Positions 7,951 through 39,974 of a stretch of 64,000 bases of DNA are shown here, one piece after another. The stretch comes from Lophium mytilinum (Eukaryota > Ascomycota > Dothideomycetes > Mytilinidiales > Mytilinidiaceae). Both the position numbers and the translations under genes were made by a program. The stretch is from contig MU004192.1 in the NCBI GenBank assembly GCA_010093605.1, forward strand, positions 199,774-263,773, read 5' to 3'. Numbering within the stretch: position 1 is the stretch's first letter; each line of letters begins with the position of its first letter. Under the pieces are notes generated by a model that saw only the letters and a list, made by a program, of their open reading frames with translations, did not search any database and had not been told where the DNA came from.

Positions 7951-7959
7951 CCTTATTAT

Positions 7960-10135: not shown

Positions 10136-10194
10136 TAGGAATTTCTAAATTAAGAAACGCGCGGAGAATACTAGTTACTTACGTGACCTTCTAG

Positions 10195-10300
10195 AAGACT
10201 ACGCATTTTGCCGCTCCGCGGGCTTTACGCTACTCTATAAAAGTTTGCCTACTTCTTGCGCAAAATTTGCGCGCAGGCTGCGCAGACAATTTTTAATTAT
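10195..10300. repeat. Left subterminal repeat region of the inserted element
   Basis: Several TGCG/CGCA words cluster here (actacgca, tttacgct, cttgcgcaaaatttgcgc, ggctgcgcagac). The block resembles the reverse complement of the right end near 36,620-36,680, for example gcgcaaa(a)tt followed by ctgcg(c/t)a(g/a)ac. A TATA-like word, tataaaag, sits at 10,236-10,243. Subterminal repeats are transposase-binding sites in CACTA-type transposons. Confidence 0.4.
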
Positions 10301-10849
10301 AGATAATCTAGCATTATGGGCAATTATTACAGTCAATAACTACTTTATAGTCCTTATAAATGTAGCTATCCACCTCCTCTATCTAACCTTCTAAAACTGC
10401 CTAATCCGCCTGGGTTGCAGATAGATAGATAACAACGTAGATGGGGCCTTATACACTAAATACATAATTATCGCGTGCAGTAGAAAATTTAAAGTTGCAC
10501 TAGTATATCTAGTTGTCCCTTCTTACTACCTCCGCTAGGGCTTTATAGTCTACGGCAACTTTGCATGTATTATAGACTTTACGCGTTGCGTAGATAGTAA
10601 TGCCTGTATATATTTCTAAGGATTGCGTAACTATTACTAACCTTAATAATTTTAATATCCTAGTAGACTATTAGAGCTAGCAACGCGTGCGCTAGACGTC
10701 CGGGCTAGGGAATAGCACGCGACATGCATGTTGCGCGTTAGATAGTAGACTATATAGTAATTTAGGACGCATCTAATTACGGTATATATATTGCAAAATA
10801 GAAAGATAACGCTAAGCATAAGATAGAGCCTACTTACACCCTATTTACT

Positions 10850-13060
10850 AATTCCATGCTACTATTCCTTATCCCTAATACTCTTAAGCAACTCAACAAC
10901 TAGCCGCAGGCTTTCTTCTCTAGAATCCTGTGCCTTAACGCAGGCAGCTATAAACTTTTAATATTAGTCCTTATTAGATACAATTATAGTATTATTTTTA
11001 TACCAGCCGCATTTATCTTTCTTTATATAGAACTGCTGCCTAAATTACGCAAATAAGAGATTAAGAGGGCACCGCTTCTAGCAGTCCTTTATTTTAATAC
11101 TCTCCTTGGCCTCCCTATAAATTAGAGCTAAGCGGTATAAGTTATTATCAGTAAGGGGCTCTATATTATTAATCTTGTTATTCTATAGTTAATATAATTA
11201 GTATATTATGCTTTAGCTCTCTACCTTATGCAATTACCTACACTGTCCACAATATCTAATAAAGTGTCCCTAAGGGGGGGGCTAGATAGAATTAAACGCG
11301 GTAAGGACGAGTACCTAGAGTTAAATAGTTGTACTTCACTCTTAATGCGCTTTATTAGCGCACGTGTCTTCTCGCGTCAGTTAATAAGGTTCCGCTGCCG
11401 ATCCCGCTCCTTTGCTTCCATTCTCGCCACCCTCGCGGTAAAGGCCTATTATTGTTCCAGTGTCATATCTTTAGTTAAATTTAATGCGTTGTGGCGGTTA
11501 GAGTCATTATATATATCCTTGTTGTCGTCTTCTTTATAGTTTATATGCCAACCTACCCGTTTTATAATAAATTCTTGCCAGTAGGATAATAGTTAGTGCT
11601 TGCGGCGTAAGCTAAGTGCCCGCCATTAGGCGAGACATTTATTATAATTTACTACCCTAGCTTATAGTTAGCATAGTCTTGTATAAGGGGGGCGGTAGTT
11701 AATACTAGTAGCGGCGACCCCGTAAATTAGGTTTATGCGCTTCTGGCCCGAGGTATATTCGCTAATGGCGTGGTAGAGGCAAGTACACACATATGTAATA
11801 GTATCGCCTAAGAGGGGGTTAAAAAACTCTTTTAAGTATCTTTATATCCCTAAGGCGTTTATAGACCGTCCTGTAAAGAGTAGGTCTGTAACTACTACCT
11901 AGATGGCCTTAGCTATAAAGATTACTGGTGGCCCCTATAATCTATTAGAATGCTGTCTAACGCTAGGTTAGTAACTAACCTTAGCTTAGTCTTTATCTGC
12001 CCTGAAGAGATAGTTCCAATCCTTTATTAGCGTTAACGCGGTGCCGGCAATATCTAGAGTTATAGAACCGAAACTATAGTATTCTCGCACAATATTATAA
12101 GCAACCTTTATTGCAGTATTACAGAAATAACTAAAAGCGTTATAAATCTAGGTTATATATTATAATTAGCCATTATATAAGGTTATAGGAGTGGGGAGAG
12201 AGTAACGCACCTTCCGCGCGCAAAAAGGGTCTAGAGTAGTAGGGACGTTAGCTTAAGCATAGAATAGTTAGTCTTTATAGACGTCTGCCTATATTTATAT
12301 TAGCACTTGCTAAAATATATCTAGCCTAACACTCTTAGTCTAGGCTATAAGGTTGTTGCCGTATTCTCTAATTACGTTGGTGCCTAACACTATGCTTCTA
12401 AGTATCTAGTATCTTATTTATTCTTCTACTGCCGTGTATTTTACCTCTATAGTTAGTGCTTTAGCATGCCTATCTACGCCATCCCATATCTAAATTATTT
12501 TACTGCGTTATTTTATGCTAAGGAAGCTAATGCGGTTATAGACGGGTGTGCCTCTACCCGTGCCTAAGAAGCGGCTAGTAGAAGAGAAGGATGGTAGACC
12601 GCTTAACGCAAAGGTATTAGACCCAGTTATTTAGTTAACGGCCCTGCGGGCTTCTATCCTAGCCGCTATCTTATCTTGGACCACGGCGGCACCCTAATAG
12701 GTATTTATTAGTATACACTGCTTAGTAGAGTGGCCGTAATATATATATAAGCTAATCTTACGCTTAAAGTCTATTTACACGCAGAAGTTAGTATTACTAG
12801 ATTAGGAGATAGGCGCGTGCCTGTCCTCGTCCTCTATACCGCGTTTTCTCTTTCCGGCAAGAGATAAGGTGCGGCTAGACGGCCGAGATAATATGGCATT
12901 ACTATCTTAGAATGTCCTAGTAGTGCATCCTCTTTTACTTATTAAGTTCTATATATTTGTTATTAGTCGGCAGGCGTTAGAGTTAAGGAAGCTAGGCGCG
13001 TTACCGTGTCGATTAGTTTTAAGGCAGCGCGTTTTTACTTCTTCGCCATCTATAGTTATA
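10850..13060 (-). pseudogene. Unknown protein remnant A of the inserted element
   Basis: A long minus-strand reading of about 700 codons is coherent once TAG/TAA stops are ignored. It starts near a Cys-containing segment (RCLKTNRHGNAPSF at about 13,000). It then has a basic stretch (AGKRKRGIEDEDRHAP at about 12,830) and a helical arginine/lysine-rich part (ARMEAKERDRQRN at about 11,410). It ends after a Cys-rich KKDKCGWYKNN segment near 10,990. No original ATG is certain. I do not recognise the family. It lies downstream of remnant B in the same orientation and would belong to the leftward gene set. Confidence 0.45.
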
Positions 13061-13399
13061 CGCGTTAGCTGTATATATATTAACGTATACTATAGATAGG
13101 GTATATAGTATAGCACATTTAAGTTATATAGTAAGTCCCTATTTAGGGCAGAGAGAGATAGTCCTATATTACCTTTTACTATGTTTAAGTAGGTAACATT
13201 AAGCCTTACTAAACAATAGATAGGGGGCGTGTGGTAAAAGAACGTTCTATTTCTTAAGGCAGAGTGCGAGAATAATAACCATAAAGGGAAGTAAAGCAGA
13301 TTATAATTAAGCAGCGTAGAGAGAAGGGAATAAAGGGGGAGCAAGTTGCGCGTTTATTATAACAGGATGTAATAGAGCTAGCCGGATGCGGTCCACATG

Positions 13400-15323
13400 C
13401 GTTAACTCGGCGTCTTTAGCCAGTTATATACCTCTTCTCTATCCCCCCCTTAATAAAGCCCTATTATCCTATATAATTAAACACTTCTATCTACGCAATT
13501 ACCTCTCCTATTATATTGCCTTAGACTAGAGCTTGCACTTGCGCACTTGCGTTGACTTCCACTAATCGCCGCACGCGCGCTGCCACCTCCCGCTATTATT
13601 CCTGGATAGCATCTCCTACGCTGTTAGAATAGTGGTTAGTTAAGAGATTGTGGACTTCGCGTTCTACATTATTAGATAGATGGCTGGCCAAGTTAGAGGC
13701 CCTAATAGAGGTATTAATATTATAACGCGCAGCCGTCCCCTTATCGCTAACTTTATCCCCGGTTAGGCAACCTACTCGGGCGCAAATAACCCGCTAGCTA
13801 TCTCCTCCAGCTATAGTATATGTCCCTCTTCTACATTATTAATAATAAACGCCTCTGCCTTCGCCAACTAAATCGCGCAACCTTAAGCTATTGCATCCTC
13901 CTCTCTCTCGGCCTAAAACACCCTCTTTACTACTATTCGGGCCTTCTTTCTACAATTCCAGCCCTCTATTAGTCGCTACGCTGTAAGCAGTTATACACTA
14001 TATTGCAGGGTACTCCTCTATAGTAAAGAGGTCCCTAGATAGAAGAATAGAAGGGCAGTCTGCTAGCAGCGAATTCCCCCCCCGTGGGATCTATATACCT
14101 GGTTAGGACGTTTAGCCGTATAGCTACACTTCTAGTTCTAATAATAGCTATAGTTTAGACAACTCTATACCGCCTATATATAGGGATATTAAGCTATCTA
14201 TATTCTAGTCTAGTAAGACAGTATAAGGTTATAATAAGGCCCCGCCTCGGGGTAGTATAGTCCTAGTCTAGTTCCCTCGGCAAGGCGGGCTGTAGAATAG
14301 TCTAATCGCAAATTAGGTTGGCTAGGTATATAGACTCTTGCGCTGTCTAAGTTCTCTGCCTTTTATAGTTCCGCACTCTTATCTCTTGTATAACTCTTAT
14401 ATTCTTTTTAACTTTTTCTACAGCTCTAATTTCTTACTTATTTATCTTATTGCGCAGGTGTTTATAACTAGCAGAGGCTAATATAGGTGTAGGTAGAAGG
14501 ATAGCACAGTACTAGCTAGGGTAGATAGGTGCGGGGGTGTCGTCTATCTATATTAGCTATATTAATTAAAATCGTCGCATATATCTAATATACTATTTAG
14601 CTAAGGCTTAATAATTAGAGTAATATAGTCCGGTTCTCTTAATAAACTCTAATGCACTATTACTATATGCCAGTCTACCTTATTCTTAACTAGGAACTTA
14701 AGATTATCTATAATATAGTAATATATAGTTTCGCGTCCTATATTAAGACTAAATATTATATTTAACCTAGTAACAAGCATACTAAATTTAGGGGCCGGCA
14801 TTACTAGCACACTCTTTAGCAGCGTGGGTGGTGCAAGTTTATATACTAGTATAATGCGGGCGGCCTTACTACCTAGCCGCTTTACTAATATTAACTTTAT
14901 TCCTATATGCGCTGAACTGCGGTAGTATTTAGGGTGCGGCGAAGTTCTATTTTATTCGGCAGGCGGAGTGTCCATAGAATCGGAATAACAAGACGCGTTA
15001 ATGTAATCTCGTCTTTTCTTATTATAGTTGCATCGCTGTGCGAGTTTTAACATCCACTTGTATCCTTCTTTAAGTGGAACGCGCAAAAGCATCTTAGGGA
15101 ACTTCTTTATAATATCTATTATTATAGATTATACTATCCCCCTAATTATCTTTAAGTAGAGGAATCCGCCTAGCAGGTCTACTAACTTTATCTTAGTCTC
15201 TATTACGGTATATAGCGTATTATATTCGCGGGCGCTAATATTAAGGCCCTGCATAAGCTTATTCCTAGAGTCCAGCTTAAGGTTATTAGGCATTAGGGAC
15301 TAGCCTTGTTCGTCTAACAACAT
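13400..15323 (-). pseudogene. Unknown protein remnant B of the inserted element
   Basis: A minus-strand ATG at 15,323 opens a reading MLLDEQGQSLMPNNLKLDSR (one RIP stop read as Gln) that continues past LREYNT- and KFPKMLLRVPLKEGYKW-like text. It appears to extend to about 13,400 with a helical segment SNNVEREVHNLLTNHYSN. Interruptions are almost all TAG/TAA. The protein would be about 600 residues. I see no diagnostic catalytic motif and cannot name a family. It sits between remnant A and the SNF2-like gene, all transcribed leftward. Confidence 0.42.
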
Positions 15324-16720
15324 AATAGTTTAACAATTCTCGGGGTGCAGAAGGGGTAGAAAAGGCAAAGTTGGAGTTAGTTTATGTACGTGTTCGGACG
15401 ATAGAGTACCGAGACTAGACTCTTATTGCGTCTGCGTAACCAAATTAGCTACTTTAGCGGTAACTATTTTACAGTAATTAATAGAATACCTATACTGCCT
15501 CTTCTCTTAAGAAGAAACTAAAGCCCCTTCGCATTAACAGCAACCTAGCATTTATTAAGTTGTTGGTGTAAGATCTAGATAGTTTAGTATTGGGCTAAAA
15601 ATTCTATATTTTATGCTGCTGCCTAATATATTTATGCATTTAAGTGTTAGAGATAATTGTAAATAATGCTCTATTATTAACTATTACTATGTAACGGCCC
15701 GGTTTATTTATCTAAATGTATGCTTAGGCGGTGCTCCCTTTTTTATAATTATTAACGTTATTATAGGGCGCCGTTATAATGCTTTAGGGCTTTAGCTAAT
15801 TATATATAGTGTAGGAATACTAATATTATAAGAGTATAGGCCTACACGCCTATTTTAGGATACTCTTATTTAATTTATATAATAGCTAGGACTAGGGATA
15901 TATACTTTCTCTAGCAACTTAGATATATTAAGAAGCGTAATAAATATAATAGTGTTTTAGAGTATTTTCTAAATTAAGTAGAAAGGTTACAAATAGATAG
16001 CGTCTAAATTAGCTATAGAGTGGCATGTGAACGTATTATACTATCTTAAAACTAACCTAACTTGTCTCTACATCTAATTAGCCGTGGTGTTGGTAGTATA
16101 TTAAAATATAGGTAGCTAGAAAGGGCTTAGCATTAGTAAGTGTATACTTTTCTACCTGTTTTCTTTTAGCTAGTATGTATATACGGCACTAAATCGTACT
16201 ACTACAGGCCTATAGTATACTCTAATTTATAGGCTACTCTATTTAAATCTCTTTATTAGGAATATAAGTAAGATTAGACGCATACTAGCTACTAACATCC
16301 TGCGGTCCAGATTAGAAGGGTAGGATAGAGGGTTCTTGCGACCTTTCTATGCCTTATAACGTGCGAGAATATTACTAACAACACATGCGGGCCTACGGAG
16401 CATCAGCGCCGCTATATAGATATTTACCCATATAATGCTATAGTTTATATCGCTAATACTTAGGCCTTAAATTGCATTTAAGGCTCGCACTGCTAATACC
16501 TAAGCCTTGCAGCAAGTATATAGTTAAGTAGATTATATTAATATTAAAAACGGACAGTCTACAGCAGACCTACTATAGATATAGTATACTTATTAACGCG
16601 GCGATTACAGGTGTATTATAGAAGTAGAAGTTAGAATAGTTTATTTTATAATGTCTGCTATAGAACTATGTGCACTATATAATTAGTGCATTTAGCAGTT
16701 ACCTTAGTACTAATAGTTCC
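15324..16720. other. Intergenic part of the inserted element, no gene seen
   Basis: About 1.4 kb between remnant B and the 3' end of the SNF2-like remnant. Both strands are rich in stops and I find no coherent protein text, RNA gene or clear tandem repeat. It could hold the SNF2 3' UTR and the promoter of remnant B. Confidence 0.35.
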
Positions 16721-19700
16721 TTAGTTTTCCTTCTTTTTTAGTACACTTCGCATAACCTTATACGTAAACTTATTATTATTAACCGCACGGGACTAAGCTA
16801 GCGCATCTGCTGGGTTGTTACCCCCTATATAGGCGAGAATAATGCCGCATGTTCCGTTGGACCTCTAGTTCTTCCGCCACACTCTAGATATAATCTATAC
16901 CTTAAGGCTAGATGCAGTCTATGGCTCTATAACTATCACGCACGTGCATTAAAAAGCAAAGTTGGAGCCTTCTACTCCTCTAGTCTTCCGGTTCGCAACT
17001 AGAATATTAACGGCCGCTGGATCATCTTAATTACGCTTAAAGCCGGTATTAAATTGCTCCCGTTACTTAACTATTAGCAATAAATGTAACCATGCGAGCT
17101 TTTTAGTTAGCATAGTCTTTATAATTATCTAGTATTAATTATATTAGTTTATTAGATAATAATCGCCAATTATAGATAGAGATGGGTAGCAACTTATAAT
17201 GCAGATAACTAAATTAACTATAGGCTCCTCGCCGACAATTAGTATCTTCTTCTTCTTAGCTTAAATGTGTCGAACTATGCTCCTAATCTTCTTTAGCTTC
17301 CCCGAATTGGCTAGTAGGTTAGTGTACTGTTTAGTGAGGGTACTCTTAGAGTCTATATAATCTATCTAGCCCGCATTTTTAATGTCTTCTAGAGTAAAGG
17401 TTGGGTTACTTATTAAGCTAAGCTCTTCCTATCGCGTTTTTAACTTAGCCAGCCCAGGAATTAATACAAAAATCCAGGGCAGCCTCCCCTTGCCCGAGCC
17501 CGTTAGGAAGGCGCCCAGGCTAAAGAAAGGCGGCGGCTTATTAATTGCCGCTCTATACCTTAGCTATTCTTTATACTCTTCTTTAAGGTCTATATATCTC
17601 TCTCTAATAACCGTGCAGTACTCCTTAATAAAGGGTTTAAAGTAGTTAGGTGTACTAACTATTACCTGCTATATAATATAGAGCGGCATATCCCCTAAGA
17701 GAAGGCTATCTAGGCTAAGGCTTATTAGCATTCTGCGGATGCTTATAGCTATAATTACATCTAACACTCTCTAGAGACGCCCAGACAATTTAGAATTATT
17801 CTATAGTTACCGCTCTTTCTCTATTTTTAAGGCAAGGTAGTAACCTCTAGCCCCTATAAGGTCTTCTTAATTAACACGCCGGAGGGTAGGGCCTTAATAA
17901 AGAACGTTAAACTTATCCCCTTTATCTATATCCTCTTCCTCTAACTCCTTATCTAGAAGAGTATTATCCGGGTCGTCTTTAACATCGGCGTCTAAGTTAG
18001 TTAGGTCCGCCGTCTAAGTTGGCGTCTATAAACCTCCGTATAGCATAACTATTAGATATAATAGAGTTTTAGGGCCGCGGAGAAAAGGAGTCCCGCTATA
18101 GAATAAGCCTCCGGGGCAACTGTACGGATCAGCAGCCTTATTAAACCCTTCTAAGTTCCAGCCCCAATAAACCCAATTAAGCGCACGGTTAATATTCGCC
18201 CATTTGCGCGTAGTTAGGCGGAATGCATGCCGACACTATATAGACTTAATATAGCTAAAAGCCGTAATATATAGAGACGTATTATTAAATCCTAGGTGGA
18301 ACTTGTTAAAAAAAACGGCCCCACATATATATATAGGGGTTACTTTATCGCCATGCAATAGGTTATAGAATATTATAAAGGTCTCTAGCGAGTTTAAATT
18401 CTTATTATATTTTTTATTAAAGGTCTCCGCGCTTATAATAATAAGATAGGTTTTCGCTCTTAGATTTAGCTTATACCACACCCGACCGTTTATTTCTTAG
18501 TGGATAGGCCTAAGGTTCTTCTAGTCTTTAGAAGTAAGGTTACCCTCCGCAATACTTCTATATACACGCCGGATGTAAAGTCTTTCGCCGGGGACCTTAA
18601 AATCCTTATTCTTGCATTTAACATCCAGCCAGTATTTTGCCTCCTTATAGGTCTAATTTAGCAGACTCTTCTTAGTAAGCTAAATAACGCAGCCTTCAAC
18701 GCTGCTAGAACGCGGAGCATTAGTGCTAGCCTCTCTAGCATAAGTAGCGAATGCTATTAATATTTGCAGAGTTTTTCCTATCCTAGGGGGGTCTATAAGA
18801 ATTAGCCCACGCGCCCTGCCGGCGAGACCTTAGATAATGCTGTATGTCCCGGCTACCTAGTATAGGGCCGCACATATCTTTAGGTTAGTAGTTATTCCTA
18901 GCAGCTTAAAGGTTGCGTTACTAGAAAAATTTCTATATATTAGAGGCAAACTAAAAAACTATAGCACCTTCTTAAACGCTGCCACTAAGATATTCTTTAT
19001 AGAGCTTAATGTCAGGGCTATCGCAGCAGTAATATTAACAGCATCTACCTTCTCCGCGTTAGCCGTAATTATCTTGTTTACGTCTATAGAGGGTCTAGTC
19101 TCGCTAAGACTATATATATTAAATTTAAGCGTGGCCGCGACATTAATGCTGCTAATTGCTATATCCCCCGCGACTTAGGTATTGCTGGGGATAGTCTAGC
19201 CGCTCTCTATAGCGACCGCAAGCGCATAGAGTTGTTTTTAGGCAGTTAGGTACTAAGTAGTCCTAGGCCTAAGCGCCCTAAGCTACTATATAACCTTATT
19301 ATAGACAACACTAGGCTAAATAGGATCGCGCATTAACTTAGCATATAGCTAGATAATGTCGAGCATCTATTAGAGTAGTCGCGCTTTCTTCTCTATTTAT
19401 AGCTTCTGTGCCTTCTTCTCTACTAGTAGTTTCTACTTTCTTTATTCCTCTTGCTCCACCGCCTCTTCTAGCTGTTCCTGCCTCTTTACTTTCTCTTTAG
19501 TCGCGGTCTCGGCCAGCTCTCTCTCCTTCTATTCTGTCTGCTTCTTAGCCTTCTCCACTATCGCTGTATCTACTAGCTCTCTCTCCTTTATCTCTTTCTC
19601 CTTTATTTCTTTCTCCTTCCTTTCTTTCTCTACTTTCGCTGTTTCTGCCAGCGCTTTCTCTGCCAGCGCTTTCTCCGCCAGCTCTTTCTCCACCAACTCT

Positions 19701-21115
19701 TTCTCCTTCTTCTCTTTCTCTTTCTTTTCTCTCTCTGCTTTCGCTGTATCTGCCAGCTATTTCCACTTCTCCCCTTTATCCTGCTCCGCGGTGGAATTAA
19801 CTCTATCTACATCGGCCACATGTACGTATAGACTTATAGTTAAGTTAATAATTATTTTATCTAGAGCGTTGGCGGCGGTGGGTTTAGGTAGACCCTTAGC
19901 CGCGGCAGCCTTAGGCTTACTATAGCGGGGGCGTTTCTTAGCCGGGCGGATACTAGGGGGCGAGGACTTAAGAAAGTGCGGACCTAGCTATGCATTAGTT
20001 AGTGGTAATGTTTAATAATCAACAATAATTAACGTACGTCTAGTCTTAAGTTTAGACATCGCCTCCCTAATATTAAGGCCCTTTACTGTAAAACTAAGCA
20101 CTATCTCTTTAGGTATACTCTTTATTTCCTCTAATAGCGTAGTTAGATGGAAGTTGTTCTCTATTAACTCCCAGGTTCCATTAACTACAACAACGTGCTC
20201 TAGAGGGTTGAAGTCTGCGAAAGTTCCGTTAATGGCTTCTAGAAACTTTGCAAAGCTATAGTCTTCCGGCTCTAGGCCTTTGCCGCTAGACCTTACAAGA
20301 CGGAGAGTAAAAAGGCGTCCAGTGCTTTCCCGCTGCGGCAGCTAGTATATTATAGCGAGGACCGCGTGCAACAGCCGGGGCTTAAATAGGGTATTTTAGG
20401 CAGCGACATCTAGGGATTTTATTAGAGAGCTAAGGCCTGCTAATGCAACCAACTTCGCGGATAAGGCCGACTTAGACCGCTTCCGCTTCTTATTACTTTT
20501 AATAATACTGCCCCGTATCTTATATTTCTTATAGACTTTATACTAGATTAATATCTAATACGCTCGCTTCTACTTAGCTAATATAGAAGACTTCTTAAAT
20601 ATGCAACTCTATATATCTATAAAAAGTGTATATATTTTAGACTAAGCATCTAAGTAGGCGTTATTCTTACTATAGTTATTTTAGCCTAGTTGCAAGAGAC
20701 GTTTTACCTGTAGGTACGCTTCGGAGTTCTCTATTAGCATAAATAAGTTAGCTTCTATCCAGCGCTACACCTTAGAAGCTAGACCCAAGCCGGCCATAAT
20801 ATTTATTTAACTTAAGTAGCCTTTAGGGTTCTTAGTAAAATTAGATGCCGCCTTGCTCTGCATAGTTGTGTTGCGTAGCAGGTCTACTAGGGGTGTTACA
20901 GCCTTCCCCCAAGCAGGTCTAGAGCGTTGGCAGCTGCTGCGGGGAGGCCGGCGGCTGCGGCGGTTATCTAGCTTATCTAGCTCTGAATTGCTATTATAGT
21001 CTACTTAACTAGAGTCTATGCTTAACGACTATTTATCTAGGTTAAACTCCTTGTTATTTTAATCGTCGGGGAGGCGTTGTTGGCGACTAGTGCGTTGACC
21101 CGATCCTTTAGCCAT
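16721..21115 (-). pseudogene. SNF2-like helicase remnant carried by the inserted element
   Basis: From an ATG at 21,115 (MAKGSGQRTSRQQRLPDD) the minus strand reads as one protein of about 1,460 codons to a TAA at 16,721, broken by RIP stops. The N-terminal half has a long Glu/Lys/Ala coiled coil with six-residue repeats of the EKALA type (about 19,540-19,770). The ATPase core follows. Motif I reads DPPRIGKT (about 18,770-18,792), where DPPGIGKT or similar is expected. The C-terminal lobe has KKILIVGEEPIVN near 17,220 and VANRKTRGVEGSNF near 16,970, typical of SNF2 motif V, then a motif VI-like segment. SNF2 enzymes remodel nucleosomes or other DNA-protein complexes using ATP. The Gly-to-Arg changes and stops make it inactive. 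Confidence 0.7.
19540..19770 (-). repeat. Short in-frame repeats coding an E/K/A coiled coil
   Basis: The plus strand repeats ctttctctgccagcg-like units with an 18-bp spacing between 19,640 and 19,710, and looser TTTCTC-rich units either side. On the minus strand they encode six-residue EKALAE/EKELAE-type repeats inside the SNF2-like protein. The strong amphipathic, charged character predicts a long helix. Confidence 0.55.
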
Positions 21116-22640: not shown

Positions 22641-22649
22641 TAACCCTTA

Positions 22650-25900: not shown

Positions 25901-26849
25901 ACAAGGGCTTAACAATTCTTTAGCTTCCCTGTTGACCCGGTATAGAATAGGGCCTAGAGTTTCGCCGGGGTGTTATTGTAAAAGTAGCTAAAGGACTTAA
26001 CCTACTCCTAACGGCGCGGTATAGACTATTAAAGGAAGGCTTAAGCACTCTTATAATCCGCAAGAAGATAGTCCTCCGCCCTTGCCACTTGCTAGTCCTT
26101 GTAAGTCGTCTACTCTCCATCCACCTTATCCTTATTAAGCGCAGTCGTCGCTAACGTGCATGCCGCTAATTCTGCCGCGTGCAAGAGGCTTAAGCGGCCA
26201 AATTAGTAATGTTGTAAAACTCCCTGCCTAACCAGCGCCTCCCAGCTATTATCTAATTTTGCGCCGGCCGAGAGAGACGCGGAGTTTAACCTGGGCTGCT
26301 TAATGCGCATCTAATATTACTATCTCGCAGCCGTTCTATAACTAGCACTTACCCCAGCGGCCGTCTTCTTAATAACGCCGGCACCCTTAGCGGATACCCG
26401 TTAACTCTGTTCTACTGGACTAGTAATGCATCGCCGCCCAGCGCTCGCCTTGCGGAAGGGAGTAACGCGCTTAGACTTAGTATCTTCTTCTGTGTTGCCT
26501 GGATAGCACTCGCCTAGAGTTAAGAGTTCTTTACTGTGGCCGGTAACTGCGGCAGGAAGTTAGATACTAGAAATTAGTAAGAGGTAATACTTACTTTTAA
26601 TACACGCCGTGCTATTAGGACTAGGGAAACTAGATATAACTGCCGGTACGCGCTTAAAACTATATCTACTATAAAGGTTTATGCTAGCTATAAAGGATAT
26701 AGAAATAATAGAAATAATTGCGTACGGGCTTTAGAGTTACGGTTTAAGGGAGTAAGCCGTAGTCTTTAACGCGTAGATGCGTTAAGGTTCCGGGCTAATA
26801 GAATAGCCCGCCCCCTATTAGAACGCGTCGCGTGCTATTAAAGAACGAT

Positions 26850-29800
26850 AAGTGCTGCATACTAGCCCATAATCTAATATAATCTGCAATAATCGCTCGC
26901 AATCTATAAGTTTCTACGTGGGGCCAACTAAATTTAACTAGAAATAGGGTATATACCTTCTACTAAATATAGACACTGCTATAAGTTGTTCTAAATACTT
27001 AGCGCCCTAAATAAATATATACCGTGCTGCAAAAAGCTCCTTAAGATGCTGCAGCGGGTCCCGCTCGCTAATACTAGGACTACTAGATCCGTAATCTAGT
27101 CTTGCATGCTCCGCGTTATTTAGATAATAGACGGGATATTATTTAGAACGCCTAGATTGCCACTAGTAAGTCTACCCCTACCAGCCAACCCCTATAATAA
27201 GATAGAGTACAAGATAAATAGAATAGAGCTATATATCTCCAGTAAACTAGAAGAGTACTAGAGTCCGCCTTCTATAAATAGAGGCCCTATAAGCTTAATA
27301 TACAATAACCCGCCGGAGGCTGCTAAATTCTGCGTTCCGCACTAATAAGGCCGACTAATAATATCGTCCACATTATTGCTATAAGAGGAAGTATATCCCT
27401 CTACTAAATTAGGCATGCCCGCAGGGGCGTCTATTAGACAGGCCGATGCTAGATAGTAGACGTAAGTATTATTAGGGACCGCTATCCCCCCCGCCCGTAA
27501 AGGCGGCATTAGAGCTTACTAACCGGTTGCTCTATTATAGGGACTAATCCCCCTTCTATCTATTCTAATCGGCGTTTAACCATGCTTTTATATTATAGCT
27601 TTAGTAGATTGGCTGCACTAAGAATAATATTAACCTGCTGTTTAATAACATCCACCTTAAGAGCACGTTTTCTAACTCCCTTATGTTTACATCGGGCGAT
27701 TTATAGAACAGTAAACTAGAGGAAATTAGATACGGCGTTAGCAATACTAACTATATAGTGGAGATGCTGCATTTCCCAAGTAAAAAATAAAGCTTAAGCG
27801 GAGAGTAGCATCCGGTGTACTACTTTAATATAATAGTAGCTATATTATTCCTAATTAGATACCGCCCTTTCTATAATTACCTTATATTTATACTAGTTTA
27901 AGTCTATAATATAGAAGGCCGGCAGGTATATACTAAGTTGCATACATTAGACTAGTAGTAGTAGACTTAGTTAAAGCTCCCAGCGGGGGCCACGGTAATA
28001 CCTATCTTGCTCTCCGCGGACGAGATATAGCTTACCTAATATCGCGGCGACAAGAGCGCATAGCCAGTCTATCTAACTATTAGCAACCTAGATAGGACCA
28101 CGCGGCGCTTAAACACGTTGCCTGGCACCCTACTACTAGGCTTTATACTAAGCACGGCGGATAAAGGAGACTACCTAAAGCATTAGCTGTACTATAGCTC
28201 TTTAGGCTACATTCTTAGGCATTAGTAAAATTCTTGCCAATACTAAGCGGTTTTCTAATATAAAATAAGCTATTATAGAACATACTACTAATAGAATTAT
28301 ACTAGAATGCAGGGATAGTAAGAATTAAAGGTGCTATCCAGTATTATGCGGAATTATAGCTAATTATAAAGAATAGAGCCTACTTATAGGTATTAAATTT
28401 AGAAAACACTGCACTATATACTAGGTACCATCACATTAACGCGAAGACCTAGAGACTAAACACGCCGTAAGGTCTTACCGCTTAACTATTATTTAGATTA
28501 AATAGCAACGCAACAACGAAGAGCGTTTAAAACTTCTGCTAAATAAAGCGCTGCGCAACGTAGAGGCTATAGAGCTTAATATAGAGTTATACGTACATTC
28601 TATAAATAACTTTACCTAGAAATACCCCTATACCAACATCCACTAAATAATAATAATAGATATCCTATACTAACTATTTACGGGCGTCGTTCACGACCTT
28701 ATTAAATGGGTCTAGCTACTAGTGGCGGAGGTCTGCACCCCAGCAATTAGAAGAAAAGATGCCCGTGTCCTAATAGAAAACGAGAGCGGCTTAACCTAGC
28801 TAGACGAGCGATTTAAGGACGTGCCGCCTTTCCCGGGTCTATCTACATTTAATAAGAAGAATTTTAGCAAACTCTTGTAGTATACTAGCTCTAAATAAAA
28901 GTCTATAGCCCGCCAGCTTATAGTAGTAGTAGCACCGCTGCTAGAAGTAAAGGCACTAAACGCGCTCCGGTTTGTCCGTGCAATACTTAATTTTACTATT
29001 CTAGCGCAGTACAAGATATATAACGAGGCCACGCTAGAGTATATAGAGCTGGCGATAGCTTAAATTAATATATATAAGTTAGAATTTAGGACATTTAGAC
29101 CTAGGGATAAGGATAGAAACTACGCCTTCTACTACCCGAAATTCTACATTATGCAGCACTACGTTGATTTTATACAGAAATTCGGCGCCATTAATAGCTA
29201 TAACACCGGCTTAAATAGCAAAGCAAAACACCAACACCTAGTTAAATCACAGTATTAGTTAATAAACTATAAGAACTTTCTACCCTAGATCTGCCAATTA
29301 AACTAGAGACTTATAAACGACCAGGCCATAAACAATATACTAAACTACCAACATTACTATCCTTAACTAGTAGCGATAAGAGACATGCTAATGCGATAGA
29401 TAACAGTATTAGAAAGTATTAATATCTTAAACTTTAAATGGCCTGGATACAATAATTTCTATAAAGGCCGAATAGTGCACCATCTAAAAGTAAGCGTTAA
29501 GTACATAGCTAATATAAGCCGGGAGCCAGACTTTATAGCCGCCGCCGCCGTGTTTATTTAAGAAGAGAGGCGCAAAATCCAAGGCTAATATACTAAGCCT
29601 AGCAGCCTAGATATATTAGACCCTAATCTATTCTAGGTTAGCCACCTCTAGCTTAAGTTCCACGCTAGTATTTCGTGTTGGAAGCGATTAGGTGCTAGCG
29701 AGGACCTAGAAAGCCTTATAAAAGAAAATCTATAGTGCAACCCTAAGTAGTAGAACTAAGAATAGTAACGCAACTATCTATAGGTGCAAGAGTATAGCTT

Positions 29801-30347
29801 AGACTATACTAAAAACGGGAAGACGCGCGTTAGTATTGCTAACAGGAGGTTAGTAGGGTAGCTACAATTTATAGTAACTATTATAGACCCTATTCTAAAG
29901 GGTAAAGATACTCTATAGGCGGCACACTCTAGAGTTTTTATTCGCCTTCTAGCGCCAATTAATAATGGGAAGCTACATTACGTCCATGGCCTGGTGGAGG
30001 TAGCTTCTTAGGCTTCTAACAACAGCCGCCGCTAATAAAAGCTAGGAGCATATTAATTCTATCTACTGCCATAAGTCCTCTAAAGTGCACACGTTATACC
30101 AGCTACCTCTAGCCTAGACCCCACCCGTTTTTTTATTAATAACTATATTAACTGGGATTAATATAATACACTCTATACAGAAGACTGGAAGATAGAGGCG
30201 CAAGAGGCAATGAGGTAGTACCGGCTTAGCGGTCGCGCTAAAGAGATTAAAGCTGCCCTAAGAGTTAAAGACGCAGCGGAGATTTTAGTAAAGCGCGTAA
30301 GGGCAAGAGCACTTACTAACGCCTCTCTCCCGCAACTAAGCCGGTAA
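26850..30347 (+). pseudogene. Plavaka/CMC-like (CACTA-type) transposase remnant
   Basis: Read with stops ignored, plus-strand 27,600-30,347 matches the layout of large fungal Plavaka-type transposases as I know them. The block LLSADETQLTQYRGDKSAxP followed by VYLTISNLDRTTRR (about 27,995-28,120) is the hallmark region with acidic residues. The C-terminal region (about 28,890-29,330) has VRAILNFTILAQY, then PKFYIMQHYVDFIQKFGAI, matching the segment before a conserved His/Asn-rich block. The protein ends LTNASLPQLSR with TAA at 30,345-30,347. The start is not determined. Such enzymes cut at terminal inverted repeats and move DNA by cut-and-paste. At least a dozen RIP stops inactivate this copy. 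Confidence 0.72.
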
Positions 30348-30459
30348 ACACCAAGAAGCAGCACAGTAAAGAGGGGCCATGGCACCGGCAAGTAACAGCG
30401 TAGGTAGGAATAAGGCCGCAAGGAAAGACGTCCTTAATTTTTCCCCACTATTAAGAGAT

Positions 30460-31858
30460 AATTAAGCATTATTTAGCTTTATTAACCTCCAAGGCCAATT
30501 AACGCAAGATAATAACCGCGTACTTTCCTGTATAATTTCTATAAAACTAGGTAACGCTAGTATACCCTACTAGCGCTGCCTTACTTTACTTTTTAAAATC
30601 GCACGTTGCCACCTTTACCTATTTCCCTTTACTAATGACGGCCGCCTAATTAAATTTACCGGCTACTTAAACTCACCACCCCCTAATTACTTTCTTTCCT
30701 TAATACTTTGCAGCAATTAACCCTAAATAGCGCCTATAGTAAGCATATTATCTATGCTAGAGGTTCTAGGCTGCGGTTAAGTTATAAACCGCTTCCTAGT
30801 GGGTTAACACCGCGAGACAGAGGTGTAAGGTGTAGACCTTAATACACTTAAACTATACTTACCTATTCTAGTCTAGTTGGACGCGGACAAACCTCTCTCT
30901 AAACCGGGTCGGGACTATAAGATACCCTCCGCCTTCGCTAGAGCGTACACGTCCGAAGAGGGGGATATCTTCTACCTCCGTAACTTTAAGCATGTTAGTA
31001 ACAACACTCCGCATTTTAGCCCTATTAAACTAACACCCGCAAGCTATATAACGTCCTGGCCGACAATACTAAGCTAATAGAATAAGCGTTTTATTAATTA
31101 AAGCTGCACCCATCTATACGCGGTTGGAACGCAATCCTCTTATAGCCCTACGCTATAAAATATAATACTAAGATAAATCGTCTAGAAGAGTCGGCGAGCA
31201 TTAGCCTACTTAAAGAGGTAAGTAAGCACCCCCTCTCCTACAGATACCTGCTAATATAATATCCCTTTTCTAGCTGTTTAGGTAATGCTGTTAAGACTCT
31301 ATTGTCTATAATGCTTACACATACGCGTTACTAGGTAAGATGCTAACCTTTGCCCTCCTAAAATTCTTCTATATATACGGTCGCGTCTACTATATAGACC
31401 TAAACACTAATAAATACTTTAGCCTATAACTATTATCTCCTGCTATAATATGCATAGATTGCGGATCTGCTGGCCTTGCAGACAAGTGCACCGGTCCAGA
31501 CCCGCTCTAACTAAACGCAGCTAACTAGTTAATAATACTTTAAAACCTCTTAAGCAACATCTACATGCAATATGTTATTAACCATAAATAATAGTTAGAC
31601 CGTAACCTACTAAAGCCTTTTAATCTAGAGGACTTTTAGCACTTAGTTAATCTATATATAACGGAACTTACTAACTACGGAACTAATTTAGAGATAAGCG
31701 AAGCATTTAAGTTGGAATTTAAGCCTAATGCGGATGACACGGAGAAGAAGGATACAGAGACGGAGGCAGGCGAGGTAGGTAATACTAAAGCGGAGACGGA
31801 GGCAGACAATACAGAGACAGAGGACAGCGGGCAGAAGGCTCCTCTTAAGCGTGCTTAA
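30460..31858 (+). pseudogene. Unknown protein remnant D with acidic C-terminus
   Basis: Plus-strand readings are coherent in pieces. MDADKPLSKPGRDYKIPSAF at 30,877 begins a 66-codon open stretch. A second frame runs from about 31,300 to a TAA at 31,856-31,858, ending in a Glu/Asp/Thr-rich tail (KNxDTETEAGEV-like) and APLKRA. The frame change near 31,300 may be an intron (a GTAAG follows 31,335) or an indel. I do not recognise the family. It directly follows the transposase remnant. Confidence 0.42.
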
Positions 31859-32049
31859 GTTACATAGTAGGCGGTATATATAGTTAGTCTAGACCCCTAA
31901 ATATAGTAGTTTATCCTATAATAGCGTCTATATTTAAGTATAAGGCATAATAGGGTTTTAAAAATATTAATACATGAGTTAATTACTGGCAATTTAATTT
32001 TTCTTGCTACCCGTGCGCTTAACCCTTCTCTTTCGTAGATTATTAATTA

Positions 32050-34245
32050 TAATTAGAGATTATGTATATCTCCCTTTTATAATTAGAGTTAGCCCGCTAC
32101 TTATATTATCTTACCCGTCTTAATTCTATTACACCCCTCCTTATTAAGCAGGGCTACTGCTCGTTTAAACACCGCGCAGGTATATATAAGTCGGTTGCAC
32201 TAGTTAAGATTTACGCCCTATAAACTATTTAAAGTAATACCTAGGGTAGCTAATATTAGGGGCTGCATCCCTAATAATATTAAGAGGCATCCTGTTAGTA
32301 GACCTACTACCCTATCTAACGGACCTAAATCCTTCCTCTAATTCTAAAGTAGCATATATTATTCTTTACCTTTAGGCCCCAACGCTAAAAGACCGCCCTT
32401 TGCAGAGCCTAGTGTCGCCCGCGGCTTCTACTCCATCGCCTCTAACGCTTAATACAATTAATTATAATTAGAGATTATCGCCCTCTTACAACAGCATAAA
32501 GTCTACTTTAACTATCTAACTTCTTAGGCCACGCAGCGTTATCTATTACCTAAGCCGAGGCTATAAACCCGCTTTACCTAATAGGCGCGCGTTATATTAC
32601 AGCTAGCGAAGACCTTTACCTCCTCCGCTAATAACTAAGCAGGCCGGTAAGTAAAACCTAACTCTAACCTTACTCTCGCGCATAAGCCTCGCTATACTCT
32701 TCCTTACTATATTACTAACAGCTTAACAGCCTAAGTTGCTGCAACCCCGCCACTATAATAGAGTAGACAGCAGTCCACTAGAATAGACCGGCGGACCTTA
32801 CTATCGCCGTCTATATTAATAGCTATATAGACTACTTTAAAGCGCTATATACTATATATAGTAGAGACGACCTAGAGGAAGCTACTATATTCCCCTAGCG
32901 CCCTTAGAAAGATATTACTAACTTTAAGGTTAAATACAACGCACTTATCTAGTCTATATATAAGTATTTACTATACCTAGTTCTAAGTTAAGAATTAGGT
33001 AATATATAGGGCGGCCAGTCTAATAAGCTAGAGATAAAGACTATGCTAGAGGCAGTAAAGAAGGCCTACAGGGAGGGCTCTAAGAGCTTCTTTATTAAGA
33101 ATTAGGCCCACGTAAGTCTATCTACTACTTCTCTACCCGCGTCTACTAACTGTTCGCCAGTACAAGGAGCTTATAGTACCCGCGGTCCTGGATAAGAGCG
33201 GCTTTAAATACTCCGGAGGTAAAGAAGGCATAGTAGTGCGGCTGCGCAAGGGCTATAGACTCTAAGTTAATATATCTATAAATACGCTTAACGTTGCTAG
33301 CAGCGCAGCACTAATTGCACATATAAGCTGCACTTTAATACCTACCCTACTAAGTATATCCTAATCTATACTTATTAATATAGATGTTAGAAAGACCTTC
33401 TACTACTACTAAGACCCAAAATATACGCCGCTGCTACACGCGAGAAGATCGCATATTTACTAACCCGCATTTAGTCCTCTTACTAATGCGTGCCTACTTT
33501 ATTGACCCTAAAGATAGTTCCACGTTTAAAGTTAGCCTTATAAACCCAATATTATTCTACTTAAATTACGCCGCCTTAGGCGAGGCTATTAGCTGCTATG
33601 CAGCTACATCTAGGGAGAAAGGGGAGAAAGATAACTGCAACCTCTAACTAGAAGTCTAAATTTATACTAAGCACATCCTTGTAGTTAAGCCGTAGATCTT
33701 AATATTCTAGAAGACCGGAAGCGTGCAAGCGGCGCTATTATTGCTGGAGACCTATATCTTTACAGACAAGCCGCAGACCTTAATGCGCTGGAAGACCGGA
33801 AGTGTATAAGAGGCGCTATTATTGCCGGAGACCTTAGCAACAGCTAAGGCTGAAGAGAAGAACTCGGGAACAGCAGTATTAGGATAAGAGACTTAAGATG
33901 CGACCTTAAAGAATAAATGTAAAGCGCCACCTAATAAACTAGAGCCTATAGACCTTGCAGGAGATAAAGATAAATTAGATATATACTACTTTAATAACGG
34001 AAAGAACTAGGTAGAGAAAGTTAACTAGAATAAAGAAAATGCCACGGAGGAGGTATCGTCCGTGGGAGACCTAGATAGCTTAGAGGCGGCGGAGGCGGCC
34101 TTGCGTAAGGCTAAAATAGGCCTAATTATAGCTTAGACCAGCATTAAGAAGGCCTTAGAAATTATGCGTACTCGCATAGCGAGGGATAAAGAGAAGAATG
34201 CTAACCCTACTATCTTCTACTCCCCCGATATTATCTAAGAGACGC
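32050..34245 (+). pseudogene. Unknown protein remnant E with an 81-bp tandem duplication
   Basis: Plus-strand coding text with RIP stops includes NKLEIKTMLEAVKKAYREGS (about 33,030-33,090). An open stretch at 33,384-33,647 begins MLERPSTTTKTQNIRRCYTR. Downstream is a charged region with an in-frame 81-bp repeat (33,687-33,767 and 33,768-33,830), then a helical segment KKALEIMRTRIARDKEKN near 34,150. No known motif is visible. It is the fourth rightward gene of the inserted element. Confidence 0.4.
33687..33835 (+). repeat. 81-bp in-frame tandem duplication
   Basis: Copies start at 33,687 and 33,768 with aagccg(t/c)agatctta / aagccgcagacctta and share gaagaccggaag and cgctattattg. The period is 81 bp, or 27 codons, so it keeps frame in remnant E. 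The copies differ mainly by transitions. Confidence 0.65.
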
Positions 34246-34851
34246 CCGAAAGTGGATGTAGAAGGCGTGTGCGCTTAGTATAGTAAGTACCTCCTTAAGG
34301 AATCACTAATTTTCTAGCGCACGCATAGATAGAAAGCGGCCTTAAATAGAACTATGCAAGTCTACCTATATATACTCCCTATATGCCTTCTATACCCTCG
34401 CGCTACTACTAAGTTAACTTTTAATAGATATGCAGCATGCATATATACCTTATGTCTTAGAGCCTATCCCCGCCCTAAGCTCTAACTTAGAAACTGCTTA
34501 TCTGCCCACTTCTAATATAAACCCCCTAAACTGCACGCGCTTAAAAACACTACTAGTCTTGCGACACCCATTTAGAGATGTTCTATAGTTGCGATATCTA
34601 GCGCGTTAAGCTATAATACAAGGGATTAAACCTAAGGCCAATTAAGAATAACTATTAGTAATAATAGCGCACTACCGTAAAGACGCACTTATATAAGATT
34701 CTAATAGTGCACTTAAGGGAAAAGTATGCAGCAACCGTTGGTTAAAACACGTGCGCCTAAGCCTTAAATTTCTAGCGCCTGCCCGTACACGTAACAGGAC
34801 TGTTCTCCTCTATTCTGCGGGTATAAAAGCCTGCCCCGTATCTCTTTCTCT
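34246..34851. promoter_or_regulatory. Spacer with TATA box before a small gene
   Basis: There is no coherent coding text over about 600 bp. The word gggtataaaagcctg at 34,820-34,834 is a good TATA box, placed about 30 bp before an ATG at 34,852 with a pyrimidine-rich leader (tatctctttctct). Confidence 0.4.
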
Positions 34852-35316
34852 ATGCCACGGAGTAGTAGGAGGTGGCAAGAGTTAAAAAGGTAGAAGAGTT
34901 ATAGTAGAGATTAACTTAAGGCTAACTATTTAGAATATAGCGGGTGTTAAAATCGCGTACACTAATAAATTATAGTAGGGGCTAAAGCTAGCAGAAACTT
35001 GTCTAAGACTCTAGAAAATAGAGAATAAGAGGCAGTGCGCGGGTATAGCTTACTAATAGTGTCTACTATAATAGAAAGCTAATAGCGCACTAATATCTAG
35101 GTTAGTAGTTAGACTAGCACGGTTCTGCAAAGCTATATTAGGCAAAGGTAATATACTCTAGCATCGCCGGCTTATATTACCTACTAAGCTTCTCTATTCC
35201 TTCCGCTCTACTCTATAAGCTTTTTTATCTACTAGGTTTCTCTATCCCTTCCGCTCTACTCTATAGAATTTTTTTTCCACTAAGTTTCTCTATCCCTCCC
35301 GCTCTACTCTATGTAA
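34852..35316 (+). pseudogene. Small protein remnant F with three 16-residue repeats
   Basis: An ATG at 34,852 follows a TATA box by about 30 bp and starts MPRSSRRWQELKR. The frame runs 155 codons to TAA at 35,314-35,316, interrupted only by TAG/TAA of the RIP type. Its last third is three copies of a 48-bp unit, each coding 16 residues around VSLSLPLYSI. The native product would be about 154 residues: a basic N-terminus and a hydrophobic repeated C-terminus. The family is unknown. It is the last gene before the right end of the inserted element. Confidence 0.42.
35181..35313 (+). repeat. 48-bp tandem repeat, three copies
   Basis: Units start at 35,181, 35,229 and 35,277 with ctactaagcttctctat, ctactaggtttctctat and ccactaagtttctctat. 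Each contains ccgctctactctat. The period is exactly 48 bp, so the reading frame is kept. Confidence 0.8.
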
Positions 35317-36536
35317 TAGCGCCTTAGTTCTAGTGCGATCTTTTATATGCACAGCTCTTAATCTTCCTAACTACTGCACGCGACTATATATCTACATTTT
35401 CCACCGGCTTTTAACCCCACCCCAACTACTACTTCTCTAGCCCTACTTTCCTTAGAAAATAAGCGGGCGGATAGAATATATACTCTATCGCCGGCGCCGG
35501 ATACGCTTTAATCTAGTGTTACGGGGATAACCTAGCCCTTATATGCGCTAGTAATAGACGACTATCTACTATATAACAACGCGGTAGAGAGAGGGAAAAT
35601 AAAGCTACTTCTACTCTAATATCTCTAACTCTCCTTATAGCACTGCGTAAGATTATCTAGAATTATATAAGATTATCTATAATTATTATAGCGTGCCCCC
35701 CACATTCTTATATTCTAAAAGAGACTCTAGCCTATTTCTTTAAGTATATTTTAGGTTCCGTAACTGCCCCGCTAGATAGAGAGTATATATTCTTATTGCC
35801 TTCTAGCGCATAAGTATACTATAGGCTGGGTTGCAAAACAACAGTATTCTAACTCTTAAGGTTAGAAGTGTAATGGGAGAGACTATAAACGGAGGAGCGG
35901 CGACCTAAAATATAGGTAGAAGAAGTAAAGCGTACTAATATAGAGGGAAACAAGAGATATAGAAGAAGTAAATAGAAAGAAGGGGCTATAGAGGCGGTAG
36001 CGTTATAGCTATAATGCTAGAGGCTATTCTATAATATAGATATAAGAGACTACTGCTGGAGCTTATATTAGCAGTAGAATAGTTATATACTTTTTATTAT
36101 TTGCGGATAGTTATACACCGCAGCCCAACTCTTAAATAATAGGTCTTAGTAGCGACGTAGTAAGAGTCTACCTAAGAATATATTAAGTATCCTAATCGTA
36201 ATTTGCAAGCCGGACCTAGCGCTAAATTATAGAATAGATAGATTATATCTTTTCCACCTATCCTCTATGCATCCGTTAAATCCACTTTTTAACTGCTACG
36301 GCCCTAACTTTGCCGTACTAACTGTTTATGGGATGAAGATTAGACGTCCTAGCCTAAGTACTTACTATCCCTGCTTACTTCCACCCCCGCCTTGCACTGC
36401 TATAGAGAGGGAAGAGCGGCGAATAGAATTATTTTATAGCAGGACGTGGGCGGCATTATATACGGGGCACGTGTGTATTAGCTCTAGCACCGCTAAGGCT
36501 AATTAGGCAAAAGACACTATGGAACTAAATTATCAA
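35317..36536. other. Right interior of the inserted element, no gene supported
   Basis: About 1.2 kb follows remnant F. There is an open stretch at 36,267-36,506 on the plus strand (79 codons), but it has no neighbours in phase and no motif, so I do not call a gene. Composition stays like the rest of the inserted element. Confidence 0.35.
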
Positions 36537-36574
36537 TAGTTTAAAATAATAGATAATAATTAAGTATTATTAGG

Positions 36575-36665
36575 CTGCGTAGTATATAGGTAAACTACTA
36601 CTAGTCTACGCAGTAATATTACCTGCGCTGGTAGTTTACGCAGACGTTGCGTAATTTGCGCGGTT
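36575..36665. repeat. Right subterminal inverted repeats of the inserted element
   Basis: CTGCGTAG at 36,575-36,582 is matched by CTACGCAG at 36,606-36,613. GTAAACTAC at 36,590-36,598 is matched by gtagtttac at 36,631-36,639. Further TGCG words follow (cctgcgctgg, gacgttgcgtaatttgcgcg). The clustering near the element edge suggests transposase-binding sites. Confidence 0.5.
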
Positions 36666-37406
36666 TGCCGGAAGTTTGCGCCGTTCGCTGCCGAGCACTA
36701 ACAGCCCTAACTTTTGCAGTTTCGGGTTTTCCTAATAAGTAGTAGTATAGTTTCCTCTACCGTAGTTACTACTAGAGAAGCTAAAGTAGCTAGTAGAGGT
36801 TTACCTATAGTTCTAAACTTAGTCTAATAATATTATAGCTTAGCGGGTATAACTAGAGGGACTAGTCTAATAGATAGAGCTAGTTAAGAGGTAGTAGCTA
36901 ATATCTATAACTGGAATTAAGTTGCGCCTTAGAAGGGTAGGTTTATAGCCCTAATAAAATAAGGCTATAGACTATAATTAATCTATATTATATTATTATT
37001 ATTATCTTTTATAAGAAGGTATTATAGGTTTAAGGCACCTTTTTAATATAATATAATACTAATACAGCGGGGGTTAATAGAAATACTATTAGCGTTACTA
37101 AATAGGCGTTTAGGGCATCTACCTAAGATAGAGTTACTAAACTATAGAGCTTTAGCGCGGTTAAAAGTATAGTAGTTAGGGTTAGCTATATAAGAAGATA
37201 GAAAAAGTTAGTATAGAAGAAAGAAAACTTAAAGAGGTAAGGTATTAAATTTATATATAAGGGCCTATTAAATTTAGATTATTTACTATATACGCCGGGT
37301 GCCTAGAAGGTTTAAGAGGGTAGTGCTAGTAGCACTAGTTACGCCTAGTTGCGGGACTACCTAGGGGGTTATAGTAAATAATAAGTTTAGTATTTATAAG
37401 GCGCGG

Positions 37407-37472
37407 GTAGTATATAGAAAATAAGTAGTATATAGAAAATAGGTAGTATATAGAAAATAGATAGTATATAGG
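37407..37472. repeat. 18-bp tandem repeat, 3.6 copies
   Basis: The unit gtagtatatagaaaataa/g repeats at 37,407, 37,425 and 37,443, with a partial copy at 37,461. It lies in the gypsy leader. Confidence 0.8.
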
Positions 37473-37520
37473 TACTTATTCTATAATACTAGATATATAC
37501 TTAGCTTACTATTATTAATA

Positions 37521-39970: not shown

Positions 39971-39974
39971 TACA

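What the first reader, a model, noticed from the sequence alone, without database searches (positions are those of the whole stretch)
10136..36734. A 26.6-kb multigene DNA transposon of Plavaka/CMC type, previously unnamed as far as I can tell
Seen: a block with its own composition, a Plavaka-type transposase remnant, an SNF2-like helicase remnant, at least four other degraded coding regions, TGCG-containing subterminal repeats and an inverted 8-bp match at its edges. Known: Plavaka/CMC elements carry one large transposase and are usually far shorter. Inferred: all these genes travelled together as one giant element, comparable in scale with Starships or Mavericks but with a different transposase.
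Basis: partly seen in the sequence, partly recalled or inferred. Interest (0 to 1): 0.9.

Follow-up and report, generated by a model that had tools for sequence, protein, structure and literature searches.

The report
Giant multigene Plavaka transposon, RIP-mutated
A 26.6-kb jumping gene that moves with a rare fungal transposase family and carries several extra genes was copied many times through the genome of a fungus and then mutated to death by the fungus's own repeat defence.

Summary
Window 10133-36737 (26,605 bp) is one unit inserted in an older, RIP-saturated gypsy relic. The same genome (Lophium mytilinum, by a 100% identical flanking protein) holds at least 15 other left ends and 14 other right ends of the unit. 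Four other copies are colinear and, by spacing, uninterrupted (26.5-26.65 kb); one is nested in a further copy. The one read end to end differs from the window by 2,509 transitions, 13 transversions and no indel. Empty sites and 6 of 8 paired flanks give a 2-bp target duplication. The only transposase detected is Plavaka (PF18759); all 12 such matches found in the genome lie in copies of this element and contain stops. The termini are what RIP would make of the published PlavakaB ends. At least four other reading regions travel with it, including a DUF6532 protein and a probable, weakly supported SWI2/SNF2-type helicase. No Starship or Polinton hallmark was found. Precedents exist: Plavaka-flanked giant repeats in Amoebidium and 16-20 kb EnSpm in Chondrus. 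So this is a well-bounded new variant of a known kind, not a new kind.

The parts
10133..36737 (.). whole transposon, 26,605 bp
   Evidence: shared ends and colinear copies
10131..10132 (.). left copy of the 2-bp target duplication (AG)
   Evidence: empty gypsy sites; paired flanks
36738..36739 (.). right copy of the 2-bp target duplication (AG)
10133..10141 (+). left terminal inverted repeat CATTAGGAA (first base T in the 15 other left ends read)
36729..36737 (-). right terminal inverted repeat TTCCTAATA
10133..10432 (.). left subterminal zone, 7 TGCG/CGCA against 2.2 per 300 bp inside (modest)
36438..36737 (.). right subterminal zone, 7 TGCG/CGCA (modest)
10600..13300 (-). coding region G1; DUF6532 (PF20149) domain at 11734-12153
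   Evidence: Pfam E 1.1e-7 and 1.6e-8; frame bias 0 of 300
13900..15600 (.). coding region G2, unidentified; strand not resolved
   Evidence: frame bias 3 of 300; best + and - frames 30 and 31 stops
16600..21000 (-). coding region G3: probable SWI2/SNF2-type helicase at 16801-19000, coiled-coil repeat near 19.5-19.8 kb with a 45-bp in-frame length variant between copies; strand from the family matches, since + and - frames have 65 and 62 stops
   Evidence: PADLOC ZorD E 4e-5, DrmD 0.034, Pfam SNF2 0.056; motif I best of 53,074 positions; frame bias 0 of 300; 45-bp variant
23300..25500 (+). coding region G5, unidentified
   Evidence: frame bias 0 of 300
27776..30100 (+). Plavaka transposase remnant; PF18759 in two frames at 27776-28294 and 28266-28712, C-terminal part to about 30.1 kb
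33462..34262 (+). possible further coding region (weak)
   Evidence: 24 of 300
36738..38199 (.). host gypsy relic, second part, LTR at 37998-38199

Best explanation
One giant cut-and-paste DNA transposon of the Plavaka branch of the CMCT clade (CACTA/EnSpm-Mirage-Chapaev-Transib). Its DDE transposase bound short terminal and subterminal repeats, excised a 26.6-kb unit and joined it at staggered cuts that leave a 2-bp duplication (unit, ends and duplication shown; enzyme chemistry inferred from the family). At least four other coding regions, among them a DUF6532 protein and a probable SWI2/SNF2 helicase, are fixed parts of the unit (shown as co-mobilised; roles inferred: the helicase most likely opens chromatin or helps handle long DNA during transposition or against silencing). 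The element multiplied recently in Lophium mytilinum, and every transposase domain match found there is now broken by repeat-induced point mutation.
For: Besides the window, 14 left ends start at exactly 10134 and one at 10131, among 19 rows; 14 other right ends reach 36737 among 19 rows (query ends there), whose query runs past the end, 6 of 13 rows stop at 36737-36739. All 15 other left and 14 other right termini were read. Four other colinear copies, uninterrupted by spacing. One copy read whole: 26,604 aligned positions, 2,509 transitions, 13 transversions, no indel. Empty gypsy copies run across the site. That whole copy sits in yet another copy of the element, and the window shows its empty site with AA duplicated. 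2-bp flank match in 6 of 8 paired copies, permutation P 0.0036. Plavaka domain above its cut-off, and 12 of 12 PF18759 rows lie in copies of this element.
Against: 2 of 8 paired copies do not match at 2 bp; one of these matches at 3 bp. The helicase call is weak: all Pfam scores are under the curated cut-off; no helicase by phmmer against solved structures; no protein relative; in my PSSM test motif I ranks first but its score (15.0) is just under the highest of 30 shuffles (15.2), motif III is fifth, and motifs Ia, II, IV and V-VI do not stand out; alignment with a host SNF2 failed. G2 and G5 are unidentified. The first transposase part shows no frame bias. No intact copy or outside relative of the whole unit was found, so activity and gene roles are not shown.
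Confidence: 0.9

Rival explanations
1. Patchwork of several unrelated transposons that look like one block because they inserted into each other.
For: The neighbourhood is full of nested repeats, and many copies are interrupted.
Against: Same two ends and order in five copies counting the window, and zero indels over 26,604 bp against the one other copy read whole; intermediate CpA/TpG level throughout the block.
Confidence: 0.03
2. A giant element that is non-autonomous: it lost its working transposase to RIP before it multiplied and was moved in trans by a helper.
For: 219 of 226 in-frame stops of the window in six coding frames are shared with the whole second copy; stop numbers in the first part of the transposase domain run only from 16 to 24 over ten copies of very different RIP level (matched spans differ).
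Against: RIP sites are strongly uneven: odds ratios 1.8-10 between copies at visible sites, so shared stops can arise independently in each copy; no other Plavaka was found in the genome.
Confidence: 0.2
3. A Starship or a Polinton/Maverick (virus-like) element.
For: Comparable size and several genes; Pezizomycotina host.
Against: No tyrosine recombinase (DUF3435), polymerase B, integrase or capsid match in six frames at E 0.1 (RIP lowers sensitivity); DUF3435 has no match in the genome, though that search had no positive control; 2-bp duplication and Plavaka transposase instead.
Confidence: 0.03
4. A segmental duplication of ordinary genomic DNA rather than a transposon.
For: Large size and several genes.
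Against: Precise ends, different flanks in nearly all copies read, target duplications, nested self-insertion.
Confidence: 0.01

Closest known systems
PlavakaB families of Agaricomycotina (Kojima 2025, PMC12730594; abstract, sections 3.2 and 3.3, passages and figure legends read)
   Same: Plavaka transposase domain; 2- or 3-bp TSD; published termini CATCA..TGATG would become TATTA..TAATA under RIP at CpA/TpG; TATTA is seen in 15 of 16 left ends (CATTA in the window) and TAATA in 15 of 15 right ends.
   Different: Host is a dothideomycete, not a mushroom; 26.6 kb with several other genes; no TET/JBP dioxygenase detected (PF12851 no match, no positive control); the pre-RIP termini here are inferred, not seen.
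Plavaka giant repeats of Amoebidium (PMC11244446; passages read)
   Same: Multi-gene units of tens of kb linked to a Plavaka transposase.
   Different: Described as tandem clusters of genes up to 50 kb, many encoding tyrosine recombinases, usually flanked by the transposase; here the transposase is internal, and ends and target duplications are fixed.
Enlarged EnSpm/CACTA of Chondrus crispus, 16-20 kb with 4-5 ORFs (as cited in PMC6431247; passage read)
   Same: CMC-type DDE transposon enlarged with extra ORFs.
   Different: Another branch of the clade, a red alga, smaller.
Starships (PMC12134995; passages read)
   Same: Giant gene-carrying elements of Pezizomycotina.
   Different: Moved by a DUF3435 tyrosine recombinase at the 5' end; not found here.

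Membership tests
Plavaka (PF18759, CMCT clade) | Plavaka transposase domain | tested here: met
   E 1e-14 / 8.1e-16 (profile 33-218) and 7.6e-12 / 6.3e-13 (profile 193-325)
Plavaka (PF18759, CMCT clade) | DDE, C(2)C and H(3-4)H motifs in the transposase | tested here: inconclusive
   first D and its block kept; some C and H positions changed as RIP would (C to Y, H to Y); the two candidate acidic positions for the third residue read G and K; which is catalytic is my inference
Plavaka (PF18759, CMCT clade) | 2-bp (PlavakaA) or 2-3-bp (PlavakaB) TSD | tested here: met
   6 of 8 at 2 bp, one more only at 3 bp, one not at all
PlavakaB | termini CATCA..TGATG | tested here: inconclusive
   CATTA or TATTA..TAATA seen; consistent with RIP of the published ends, not proof
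CMCT clade | 5'-CA..TG-3' ends in most cases | tested here: inconclusive
   left CA kept in the window copy only (1 of 16); right end TA in 15 of 15
Starship | DUF3435 captain near the 5' end | tested here: not met
   no six-frame match; none in genome, (no positive control)
Polinton/Maverick | protein-primed PolB, retroviral-type integrase, capsid genes | tested here: not met
   no six-frame Pfam match at E 0.1; RIP lowers sensitivity
SWI2/SNF2 helicase (G3) | helicase motifs I-VI in order | tested here: inconclusive
   motif I top of 53,074 positions (shuffles reach a similar score), motif III fifth, others not; ZorD 4e-5
TET+ transposons | TET/JBP dioxygenase gene | tested here: inconclusive
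   PF12851 no match in genome, no positive control; PE-type may escape Pfam (inference)

The most novel reading that the evidence does not exclude
A class of giant, DDE-transposase-driven, multi-gene elements exists in ascomycete fungi beside the recombinase-driven Starships, with a fixed suite (Plavaka transposase, SNF2-type helicase, DUF6532 protein and others) that works as a transposition and anti-silencing module; RIP normally destroys it beyond recognition, which would explain why it was overlooked.
Probability: 0.4. Interest if true: 0.8.

Novelty: new variant of a known kind. Interest (0 to 1): 0.62.

Why it matters
It gives a Plavaka-type element of 26.6 kb with proven ends, target duplications and self-nesting in a dothideomycete. 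It shows that a unit of this size with several genes has moved with the marks of a DDE transposon in a fungus. It is also a natural record of RIP acting on nearly identical copies: almost only transitions, at very different densities. Automated annotation is likely to miss such elements because their genes are broken.

Tried and rejected
Six-frame Pfam with stops as X found only Plavaka and DUF6532. Solved-structure searches of G3 and G5 found nothing useful. A protein search with G3 found none; with the transposase C-terminal part it found three Plavaka proteins, at 27, 27 and 24% identity. A viral-contig scan with P0001 found no relative. PHROGs gave no informative match.

A RIP-aware pairwise alignment against the host SNF2 scored highest in E/K-rich coil, so I dropped it. 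BLAST and phmmer against the same host SNF2 also failed. Claim considered and rejected: that shared stops prove the element was dead before it multiplied. The right end of a copy on C2 was sought in a fetched piece, but that piece reads N throughout, so the question stays open (the script stopped with an error). Iyer et al. 2014 is not held, so what it says about Plavaka is not used.

Claims about print rest. Those searches listed no paper on a Plavaka element of this size in a fungus, judged from listings and the passages read; the supplementary files of Kojima 2025 were not seen.
Full report
What is there. The window is G000:C12:199774-263773 of a 43.2-Mb genome in 24 contigs. A protein encoded in the flanking, undamaged part is 100% identical over 93% of the query to one of Lophium mytilinum, a dothideomycete. 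Bases 1-10132 and 36738 to about 39,990 are AT-rich with almost no CpA/TpG, the mark of saturating repeat-induced point mutation (RIP); 10133-36737 has an intermediate level.

One unit. The left half, the right half and five smaller pieces were searched against the whole genome. With 33 bases of gypsy flank included in the query, 19 rows were returned. Besides the window, 14 start exactly at 10134 and one at 10131; the other three rows are internal pieces. For the right end, 15 of 19 rows, the window included, reach 36737, where that query ends. With a query running past the end, 6 of 13 rows are right ends stopping at 36737-36739, and three others are gypsy copies that begin at 36737-36744. 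Four copies other than the window give all five smaller pieces in order at the expected spacing: C7:2186486-2213101, C12:1357799-1384402, C13:1214973-1241621 and C11:258834-285321 (26,616, 26,604, 26,649 and 26,488 bp; the last contains a run of N). The 13.6-18.5 and 32.6-35.2 kb stretches were not part of those five pieces. The C12 copy was fetched whole: 26,604 aligned positions, 90.5% identity, 2,509 transitions, 13 transversions, no indel. Most of these transitions are C to T before A or G (1,142 and 1,000). The two copies were therefore nearly identical when they dispersed, and RIP explains almost all differences. Many further copies are interrupted by later insertions.

Ends and target site. 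Copies begin YATTAGRAATTTC and end in TTTTYCTAATA, in 16 left and 15 right ends read, the window included. An empty gypsy copy (L034) runs GGGAGAGTAGAAGTATAG across the site; the window has GGGAGAG, the element, then AGTAGTAGTATAG, so AG is duplicated; seven further gypsy copies also run across, with small differences. The C12 copy lies inside another copy of the same element. The window itself shows that empty site at 26371 (CTTAATAACGCC), and the insertion duplicated AA. Of 8 copies with both flanks read, 6 show identical 2-bp flanks (AG, CT, AA, TA, AA, AA), one matches only at 3 bp and one not at all; re-pairing flanks among copies reaches 6 or more with P 0.0036. Of 24 flanks measured, most are AT-rich and RIP-marked; two (left of the C8 and C13:566031 copies) keep many CpA/TpG.

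Genes. The + strand holds the Plavaka transposase in two frames (PF18759, profile 33-218 and 193-325), with three Plavaka relatives at 24-27% identity. Alignment shows the first catalytic block well kept and some later C and H positions changed as RIP would change them; the candidates for the third acidic residue read G and K. All 12 PF18759 rows found in the genome, at ten places, lie in copies of this element and all contain stops. On the - strand lies a DUF6532 domain. A 4.4-kb region carries a probable SWI2/SNF2 helicase on the - strand: PADLOC ZorD E 4e-5 and DrmD 0.034 with TAG read as Q (ZorD 0.002 and no DrmD with TAG read as W), and Pfam SNF2 0.056 on one piece, under the curated cut-off. 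A RIP-aware motif scan put its motif I first of 53,074 positions (score 15.0; 30 shuffles have maxima of mean 8.0, highest 15.2) and motif III fifth; the other four blocks did not stand out. Solved-structure and protein searches were negative. Stop-codon bias beyond a Markov null is seen in G1, G2, G3, G5 and the second transposase part (0, 3, 0, 0 and 4 of 300), weakly at 33.5-34.3 kb (24 of 300), and not in the six other tested stretches, the first transposase part among them; the stretches were chosen after seeing the stop table. A 45-bp length variant in the coiled-coil repeat of G3, seen in five copies, keeps the frame.

Mechanism. Shown: one unit, precise ends, short terminal inverted repeats, 2-bp duplication, self-nesting, little divergence other than RIP. 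Inferred from family knowledge: DDE cut-and-paste by the Plavaka transposase acting on terminal and subterminal repeats; the latter are only modestly enriched (7 per 300 bp against 2.2), and the copy read whole has 7 and 3 in its terminal 700 bp against 12 and 9 in the window. The helicase and DUF6532 protein are co-mobilised; their roles are guesses.

A claim I tested and dropped. 219 of 226 in-frame stops of the window recur in the C12 copy, which would suggest that the element was dead before it spread. But RIP hits are strongly correlated between copies at sites still visible (odds ratios 1.8-10), so independent mutation remains possible.

Comparison with what is known. PlavakaA has 2-bp TSDs and TGT..ACA ends; PlavakaB has 2-3-bp TSDs and CATCA..TGATG ends (PMC12730594, section 3.2 read). 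RIP at CpA/TpG turns CATCA..TGATG into TATTA..TAATA, which 15 of 16 left and 15 of 15 right ends show, so PlavakaB is the closest fit, by inference. Giant Plavaka-linked repeats up to 50 kb are reported in Amoebidium (PMC11244446, passages) and 16-20-kb EnSpm elements with 4-5 ORFs in Chondrus (PMC6431247, passage). Starship and Polinton hallmarks were not found. In the held library, 11 papers mention Plavaka, 10 of them listed.

Noticed in passing
1-2871: Another repeat runs from the window start to about 2857-2871, found at six other places with nearly the same right boundary, 87-94% identical.
   Followed up: no
38200-39993: AT-rich, RIP-marked stretch ending sharply at undamaged host sequence; 39768-39993 matches sequence beside the element copy at C13:566031.
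   Followed up: no
10133-36737 against L053-L055: Between these two copies RIP-type changes fall before A and before G about equally (1,142 and 1,000), with fewer before C and T; hits are strongly uneven between sites.
   Followed up: partly
L051 and L052: Two loci on C15 and C12 match only the last 405 of the 1,501 bp queried and have the same right flank, so one looks like a duplicate of the other locus.
   Followed up: no
G000 C24, C9 and C7 contig ends: Copies or pieces of the element run to the end of three contigs, so it may sit at chromosome ends or break assemblies.
   Followed up: no
49261-54186 and 41112-43784, - strand: Long open frames of the host next to the repeats: an SNF2 remodeller with closest solved relative CHD4 and a protein with MOV10-like relatives.
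   Followed up: partly
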